From Coriobacteriales bacterium OH1046 (lineage in GTDB: Bacteria > Actinomycetota > Coriobacteriia > Coriobacteriales > Atopobiaceae), in assembly GCA_004010535.1 (NCBI GenBank), contig RQYE01000001.1:186001-250000 (forward strand): a DNA stretch of 64,000 nucleotides, read 5' to 3'. A model generated the notes under the pieces. That model searched no databases and was not told where the DNA came from. It was given only the letters and a program-made list of their open reading frames with translations. Below are positions 18,308 through 38,865 of the stretch, piece after piece (the first letter of the stretch is position 1; every line of letters starts with the position of its first letter). Both the position numbers and the translations under genes were made by a program.

Positions 18308-18338
18308 GCCGGAGACGCTGTTCTCCGGCTTTCTCTTT
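18308..18338 (+). terminator. Intrinsic terminator after tRNA-Val
   Basis: A perfect eight-base stem GCCGGAGA/TCTCCGGC with a six-base loop is followed by TTTCTCTTT. It should end the tRNA-Val transcript. Confidence 0.88.
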
Positions 18339-18339
18339 C

Positions 18340-18387
18340 CCCGGCAGGACCCCTGTTGACTGCACAGTCGATGGCAGCCTTGCTGGG
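18340..18387. repeat. Palindromic repeat copy A
   Basis: An imperfect palindrome of about 48 bases is centred on GACTGCACAGTC (18358-18369). The outer arms are CCCGGCAGG and CCTTGCTGGG. It is the most diverged of four copies seen in the window. Its core is exactly 95 bp from the core of copy B. Confidence 0.7.
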
Positions 18388-18435
18388 AAAACGCGCCGAT
18401 AAGGTCCTGCGTACGGGGCCCAGAAGAGCATTTGC

Positions 18436-18481
18436 CCAGCAGGACCCCTGGTGGCTGTACAGTCGCTGGAGGTCCTGCTGG
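18436..18481. repeat. Palindromic repeat copy B
   Basis: The 46-base element has perfect 11-base inverted arms, CCAGCAGGACC and GGTCCTGCTGG, around the core GGCTGTACAGTC (18453-18464). It could form a hairpin or cruciform over nearly its whole length. It belongs to the same family as copies A, C and D. Confidence 0.78.
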
Positions 18482-18560
18482 TGATAAAGACGCGGGAACC
18501 GCCTGTCACATGCTCGCGTTTCAGGGCATGGCACGAGAACGCCCCCGTCCACACGTTCCG

Positions 18561-18654
18561 GCCGCCAGAGGGCCTCTATCCACGAAAATCCTGTGGACAG
18601 AGGCGATGCCGTGCCATTATTCCGTGGATAGATGCCCTCCCGTACCACGGCGGC
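18561..18654. repeat. Nested inverted repeat with two competing partners for one arm
   Basis: The arm AGGGCCTCTATCCACG (18569-18584) matches the complement of CGTGGATAGATGCCCT (18623-18638) at 15 of 16 positions. Part of the same arm also matches GTGGACAGAGGC (18593-18604) at 11 of 12. The two pairings exclude each other. GCCGCC at 18561 and GGCGGC at 18649 add outer arms. Confidence 0.6.
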
Positions 18655-18742
18655 TGCAGACGAACCTTGCCGCGATAATCATGCGGATCATAGATATAGC
18701 GTCAGAGGCTTTCGATGCTCCGACAAGTTGGAATTCGCCTAC

Positions 18743-38699: not shown

Positions 38700-38706
38700 G
38701 CTCCCA

Positions 38707-38754
38707 TCCTAGCAAGGTCTCCGATGACTGTACAGTCGCCAAGGTCCCGTCTGG
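38707..38754. repeat. Palindromic repeat copy C
   Basis: Its core is the perfect 12-base palindrome GACTGTACAGTC (38726-38737), flanked by AGCAAGG-type and AAGGTCC-type arms. It lies immediately upstream of the rnhB ribosome site. Confidence 0.75.
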
Positions 38755-38803
38755 ACACATGCTCTCCGAGGCCCGCACGCAGGCCCTTCTTCGACATGCT
38801 CCC

Positions 38804-38848
38804 CCAGCAAAACCCTTGATGACTGTACAGTCGCGAAGGGCTTCGCTG
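38804..38848. repeat. Palindromic repeat copy D
   Basis: The same perfect core GACTGTACAGTC (38821-38832) is flanked by inverted arms CAGC..CCCTT and AAGGG..GCTG. Copy C lies 95 bp away, core to core. On the minus strand copies C and D share an extended direct match that includes GGGAGCATG. Confidence 0.77.
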
Positions 38849-38865
38849 CAACGAGAGGCTGCCCC

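What the first reader, a model, noticed from the sequence alone, without database searches (positions are those of the whole stretch)
18340..18481. Paired palindromic repeat element with cores exactly 95 bp apart
Copies A and B are long imperfect palindromes centred on variants of GACTGTACAGTC. Their cores start at 18358 and 18453, 95 bp apart. A second pair 20 kb away (C and D, cores at 38726 and 38821) has exactly the same 95-bp spacing. The linkers are equal in length (83 bases between cores) but only weakly alike. This suggests one composite element, like the REP/BIME repeats of enterobacteria, that has spread and is held together by structure or by spacing of about nine helical turns. I recognise no described family. 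It could be a non-autonomous mobile element, a binding site array or an RNA 3'-end structure.
Basis: partly seen in the sequence, partly recalled or inferred. Interest (0 to 1): 0.68.

Follow-up and report, generated by a model that had tools for sequence, protein, structure and literature searches.

The report
Mobile double-palindrome repeat, 95-bp spacing
Two closely related bacteria carry dozens of copies of a small non-coding DNA element made of two palindromes held almost always exactly 95 bp apart; it appears to have jumped between genes recently, and no known enzyme or described family accounts for it.

Summary
About 70 copies of a ~60-bp palindrome (P1, core GACTGTACAGTC) were found in 34 intergenic places of this genome, mostly as doublets. 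In this genome and one sister species, 55 of 59 close neighbours lie 94-96 bp apart (47 at exactly 95), although linkers are only 55% alike. The ~155-bp element is confined to these two species: a third congener (97% complete), the rest of 140 family genomes and a paired-pattern scan of ~85,000 species lack it. Orthologous sites without it exist. The youngest-looking copies have perfect ~37-bp terminal inverted repeats that differ from copy to copy; one folded as single-stranded DNA forms one long hairpin. Arms show neither covariation nor G-U bias, so it is not an RNA structure. Best reading: a non-autonomous, hairpin-forming mobile doublet that works like a REPIN but is not shown to be one. 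The only Y1 transposase found (RAYT-like) is flanked by a different repeat, and P1 lacks the REP head. The strict spacing suggests a protein gripping two sites on one DNA face (inferred). New variant of a known kind; driver unknown.

The parts
18333..18489 (.). Whole element AB: doublet of P1 palindromes with linker, directly after the tRNA-Val gene
18333..18394 (.). P1 copy A, core 18358-18369 GACTGCACAGTC
   Evidence: profile E 3.8e-16
18370..18452 (+). 83-base directional linker, forward orientation by EM on 27 linkers
   Evidence: score 62 forward, 29 reverse
18428..18489 (.). P1 copy B, core 18453-18464 GGCTGTACAGTC; its orthologue in the sister genome is a perfect palindrome
38701..38857 (.). 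Whole element CD: doublet between rnhB-like and rplS-like genes; one P1 in the sister species, none in the third congener
38701..38762 (.). P1 copy C, core 38726-38737 GACTGTACAGTC
   Evidence: E 2.5e-11
38738..38820 (-). 83-base directional linker, reverse orientation
   Evidence: score 7 forward, 29 reverse
38796..38857 (.). P1 copy D, core 38821-38832 GACTGTACAGTC
   Evidence: E 4e-12

Best explanation
A non-autonomous mobile repeat. The unit is a ~155-bp doublet: P1 - directional linker - P1, each end being the palindrome CGTTTCCCCAGCA..GACTGTACAGTC..TGCTGGGGAAACG. A new copy carries perfect ~37-bp terminal inverted repeats (outer arm plus core), so a single strand folds into one long hairpin, as in REPINs. 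An unidentified protein supplied in trans would bind the nearly invariant core (YGACTGTACAGTCR); two cores nine helical turns apart would be gripped on one DNA face, which explains why length is kept while linker sequence drifts. After insertion the arms decay; now and then one arm is re-copied from an inverted partner (quasi-palindrome template switching), and whole 95-bp units are gained or lost between cores. SHOWN: copy number, spacing, element ends, restriction to two species, sites without the element in relatives, unit gain or loss, matched ends in some copies, re-copied arms. INFERRED: that presence/absence is insertion rather than loss, the trans-acting protein, synapsis, the hairpin intermediate.
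For: 63 core matches against 3 in the control; 55 of 59 spacings at 94-96 bp with linkers 55% identical and about 27 of 83 positions off consensus, while orthologous flanks have about one indel per 7 substitutions. Present only in G000 and G078. CD site empty in G079; C14:113884 missing in G078 and G079; G078 C15:10839 missing in G000 and G079. Exact terminal inverted repeats ending 31-32 nt from the centre in C2:192971, C14:105565 and G078 C15:10839, one mismatch in C14:191455; only 0.12% of between-element pairings reach 0.9. Long hairpin for C2:192971, -69.1 kcal/mol, z -14. Unit number differs between orthologues.
Against: No mobilising enzyme identified; the one Y1 transposase found has its own repeat. 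No target-site duplication seen. In the two species-specific cases extra DNA beyond the element ends differs too, so insertion is not base-precise. Perfect ends could also come from template switching after insertion. The window's own copies fold only weakly (z -2.9 and -1.9). Indel comparison is rough (flanks include coding parts; offsetting indels would be missed).
Confidence: 0.6

Rival explanations
1. A host-owned phased pair of binding sites (chromosome organisation or looping by a dimeric protein) kept because it is useful, mobility secondary.
For: Core far more conserved than arms, Y/R rule beside it; spacing close to nine helical turns with length constraint.
Against: Absent from a congener and from the rest of the family, so no conserved role; copies differ in place and unit number between sisters.
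Confidence: 0.15
2. A transcriptional operator array or RNA 3'-end hairpin acting on neighbouring genes.
For: Strong inverted repeats; some copies lie 20-40 bp from gene ends. A look-alike box AAACTGTRCAGTTT occurs in clusters beside genes in Rhodobacteraceae, as operators do.
Against: G:T equals A:C; no covariation; all gene orientations occur; no Rfam or terminator match.
Confidence: 0.06
3. A MITE mobilised by a conventional DDE transposase of a lost or unseen IS with the same ends.
For: Small size, terminal inverted repeats, intergenic places.
Against: No target duplication seen at the four youngest copies; no gene found between neighbouring P1 copies looks like a transposase by eye, and the one between two groups has no Pfam match; ends differ between copies, unlike a single transposase's ends.
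Confidence: 0.17

Closest known systems
REPIN (REP doublets forming hairpins; PMC3116915)
   Same: Two inverted palindromic ends at a preferred distance (71 or 110 bp there), variable spacer, intergenic, folds into a hairpin as ssDNA, doublets outnumber singles.
   Different: Each end is a full ~60-bp palindrome, not a short REP; no GT(A/G)G head; no RAYT flanked by it; distance 95 bp kept despite strong linker drift; found in an actinobacterial lineage.
BIME (bacterial interspersed mosaic element; PMC2817692)
   Same: Regularly spaced palindromes in intergenic arrays; unit number varies.
   Different: Here one palindrome type at one spacing with a directional linker, not alternating orientations of REP types; copy number tens, not hundreds.
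YPAL/RU-2 and ERIC/RU-1 (PMC2229807)
   Same: 127-168 bp non-coding intergenic elements with inverted repeats; YPAL is not A+T rich and lacks TA ends; empty sites known.
   Different: YPAL makes target duplications of 3-26 bp, none seen here; no two-core spacing rule described; sequences not compared here.
RAYT/REP system of the same genomes (GTGACAAATGACCTGTCCCC repeat)
   Same: Present in the same two species, palindromic, intergenic, sometimes beside P1.
   Different: Different sequence; it flanks the transposase gene, P1 does not.

Membership tests
REPIN / REP-RAYT | Inverted palindromic ends as a doublet at a preferred spacing | tested here: met
   24 doublets of 34 groups; 47 of 59 spacings exactly 95 bp
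REPIN / REP-RAYT | Doublet folds into a hairpin as ssDNA | tested here: met
   Strong in a young copy (z -14), weak in the window's copies
REPIN / REP-RAYT | Cognate RAYT gene flanked by the same repeat | tested here: not met
   Only Y1_Tnp gene found in G000 and its G078 orthologue are flanked by GTGACAAGGGGACAGG-type repeats; no P1 within 1 kb of the gene, nearest P1 about 4 kb away
REPIN / REP-RAYT | GT(A/G)G head next to the hairpin | tested here: not met
   No such head in the P1 consensus
BIME | Regularly spaced REPs in alternating orientation | tested here: inconclusive
   Regular spacing met; P1 is symmetric so orientation cannot be read from it; linkers occur in both orientations
MITE (DDE-transposase type) | Terminal inverted repeats | tested here: met
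   Exact in three copies, one mismatch in a fourth; decayed elsewhere
MITE (DDE-transposase type) | Target-site duplication | tested here: inconclusive
   None seen by inspection at the youngest copies, but no base-precise empty site was available
MITE (DDE-transposase type) | Parent IS with the same ends | not tested
Structured RNA | Covariation of pairs, G-U bias on one strand | tested here: not met
Known Rfam family | Match at gathering score | tested here: not met
   Only tRNAs in the window

The most novel reading that the evidence does not exclude
A mobile element whose ends are re-made at each move: one end serves as template for the other through a terminal hairpin or panhandle (rolling-hairpin-like), so each new copy has perfectly matched but individually distinct ends, and its enzyme measures nine helical turns between two palindromic cores.
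Probability: 0.17. Interest if true: 0.75.

Novelty: new variant of a known kind. Interest (0 to 1): 0.5.

Why it matters
Short palindromic repeats are common in bacteria, but how they move is known for few. This family looks young, sits in two sister species and is absent from a third, so arrival, decay, arm re-copying and unit loss can be read directly. The 95-bp rule with drifting linkers predicts a protein that grips two phased sites, and ends that match within a copy but differ between copies are a clue to the replication mechanism. The same genomes carry an independent RAYT-like/REP system for comparison.

Tried and rejected
RNA structure: rejected on equal G:T and A:C counts and no covariation. 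Linker as a second palindrome: apparent at first, but linkers are directional. RAYT as an obvious driver: its flanks carry another repeat. Known RNA family: none. Phage carriage: no paired match in viral contigs. Wider spread: the paired pattern in ~85,000 species gave the sister MAG plus five single Rhodobacteraceae contigs; those do not match the P1 profile (E 0.35 or worse) and carry AAACTGTRCAGTTT boxes instead, so they are set aside. A gene between P1 copies as a transposase: the 357-aa gene on C1 has no Pfam match, others look like housekeeping genes by eye. More empty sites in G078: synteny ended first. The core as a published motif: only irrelevant papers.

Full report
OBSERVATION. In the whole genome (G000, 2.38 Mb in 19 contigs; window = C1:186001-250000) the 12-mer with up to one mismatch occurs 63 times against 3 for the control. 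A profile of the 60-bp palindrome finds 71 copies in 34 groups in the stretches held (24 doublets, 5 triplets, one run of four, 4 singles) and 44 in 22 groups in the sister genome G078. Spacings below 400 bp: 47 at 95, 6 at 96, 2 at 94, one each at 84, 205, 270 and 289. G000 has 33 exact cores in all, and the profile finds 33 P1 copies with an exact core.

ANATOMY. P1 reads roughly GTTTnCCCAGCAnnnYYYYnRYGACTGTACAGTCRYnRRRRnnnTGCTGGGnAAAC. On outer sides conservation ends about 30 nt from the palindrome centre, so a doublet is ~155 bp: about 18333-18489 and 38701-38857. The linker is directional, with consensus features AAACGTGCCGAGA.GG and GCATTT, in both orientations. Oriented linkers are 55% identical to each other (26% shuffled), and on average 27 of 83 positions differ from consensus (733 in 27 linkers), yet length hardly changes: counting 94, 96 and 84 as changed, 9 of 56 neighbour pairs. 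Orthologous flanks have 437 substitutions to 59 gap events, about 7 to 1. The comparison is rough (flanks include coding parts; offsetting indels are missed), but the linkers keep their length roughly twenty times better.

NOT RNA. Arm mismatches are G:T 138 and A:C 157, 132 and 127 after orienting by linker. Own arms are no more complementary than permuted partners once four near-perfect copies are removed (0.583 both, p = 0.50; with them p = 0.01). So P1 is two inverted half-sites rather than a conserved stem. The position beside the core is mostly Y on one side and R on the other in all pair combinations, as for protein contact. Elements lie between genes in convergent, tandem and divergent contexts (ORFs called by a simple script). 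No Rfam match in the window but tRNAs.

DISTRIBUTION. Of 140 genomes of the family, G000 has 33 exact cores and G078 has 26; two others have a single one, no more than the control; G079, same genus and 97% complete, has none. An independent pattern on the arms gives 25, 16 and 0. The paired pattern in ~85,000 species gave only that MAG and five Rhodobacteraceae contigs with a different box; records near the window's own genome may be left out of that scan. Viral contigs: none.

DYNAMICS. Many places are orthologous in G000 and G078, but unit number differs: 2 against 3 at C1:50168, 1 against 2 at C14:22188, 2 against 1 at the window's CD. G079 has a clean site without CD (CCATCCTAGCA^AAAGACCGCCCC). 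C14:113884 is missing from G078 and G079 and G078 C15:10839 from G000 and G079; in both, DNA beyond the element ends differs too. On contig C1 a 357-aa gene without Pfam match lies between a P1 doublet and triplet in G000; in G078 there are just two P1s and in G079 neither. Two kinds of arm matching occur. (i) Within one P1: C18:24509 is a near-perfect palindrome in G000, its orthologue has the same right arm but another left arm, so one arm was re-copied; window copy B is imperfect here and perfect in G078. (ii) Between the outer arms of a doublet: exact for 31-32 nt from the centre, then random, in C2:192971, C14:105565 and G078 C15:10839, one mismatch in C14:191455. Among G000 arm pairs alike at 17 or more of 18 positions, inverted matches within one element are four outer-outer, four within one P1 and no inner-inner. 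The matched arms differ from copy to copy. As ssDNA, C2:192971 forms one long hairpin (-69.1 kcal/mol, z -14).

MECHANISM. The simplest account is a hairpin-forming non-autonomous mobile doublet. The species-specific presence, sharp ends, matched ends in some copies and length constraint are shown; an enzyme in trans, dimer binding at each core, synapsis on one DNA face (95 bp is about nine turns) and a hairpin intermediate are inferred. Template switching in quasi-palindromes (established process; papers listed, not read in full) explains matching within P1 and could explain outer matching as well; the lack of inner-inner matches (4 to 0) only weakly favours an origin at transposition.

COMPARISON. 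REPINs (PMC3116915) are inverted REP doublets at 71 or 110 bp with a less conserved spacer, forming hairpins, linked to RAYTs. P1 works like that, but two defining features fail: the only Y1_Tnp gene found in G000 (95% identical orthologue in G078) is flanked by a different repeat, and P1 has no GT(A/G)G head (PMC2817692). BIMEs and YPAL/ERIC (PMC2229807) are looser parallels. Hence: new variant of a known kind, driver unknown.

LIMITS. Copy counts are from stretches held. Gene names such as rnhB, rplS, ftsH are by eye.

Noticed in passing
window 18512-18663: A second dispersed repeat sits just right of element AB: 74-81% identity over up to ~150 bp to several places in G078, with motifs like ATCCACGAAAATCCTGTGGACAG. 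A related stretch occupies the G078 site where G000 has a P1 doublet at C14:105565.
   Followed up: no
L052:1090-1860 (G000 C12) and L149:2548-3315 (G078 C112): A RAYT-like Y1 transposase, 95% identical between the two species, flanked by its own repeat GTGACAAATGACCTGTCCCCTTGTCAC; a RAYT/REP system outside the gammaproteobacteria.
   Followed up: partly
G000 C2:79580, C2:123318, C14:105565, C14:191550: The RAYT repeat lies within about 100 bp of four of ~34 P1 groups, two of them copies with matched ends, though it is absent from the whole 64-kb window; it may mark shared landing spots.
   Followed up: partly
L036, L037, L041, L042, L050: Rhodobacteraceae contigs with clustered AAACTGTRCAGTTT boxes, which look like operators of a regulator; unrelated to P1 by profile.
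   Followed up: partly
L031:3097-4170: A 357-aa gene without Pfam match, present in G000 between two P1 groups and missing from the same place in G078 and G079.
   Followed up: partly
G000 C12:57506, C12:171847, C14:22188 left flanks: P1 elements with the variant end CATTCCCGCAGCA lie next to another palindrome of the type GTTTCGCGAAACGTGC.
   Followed up: no
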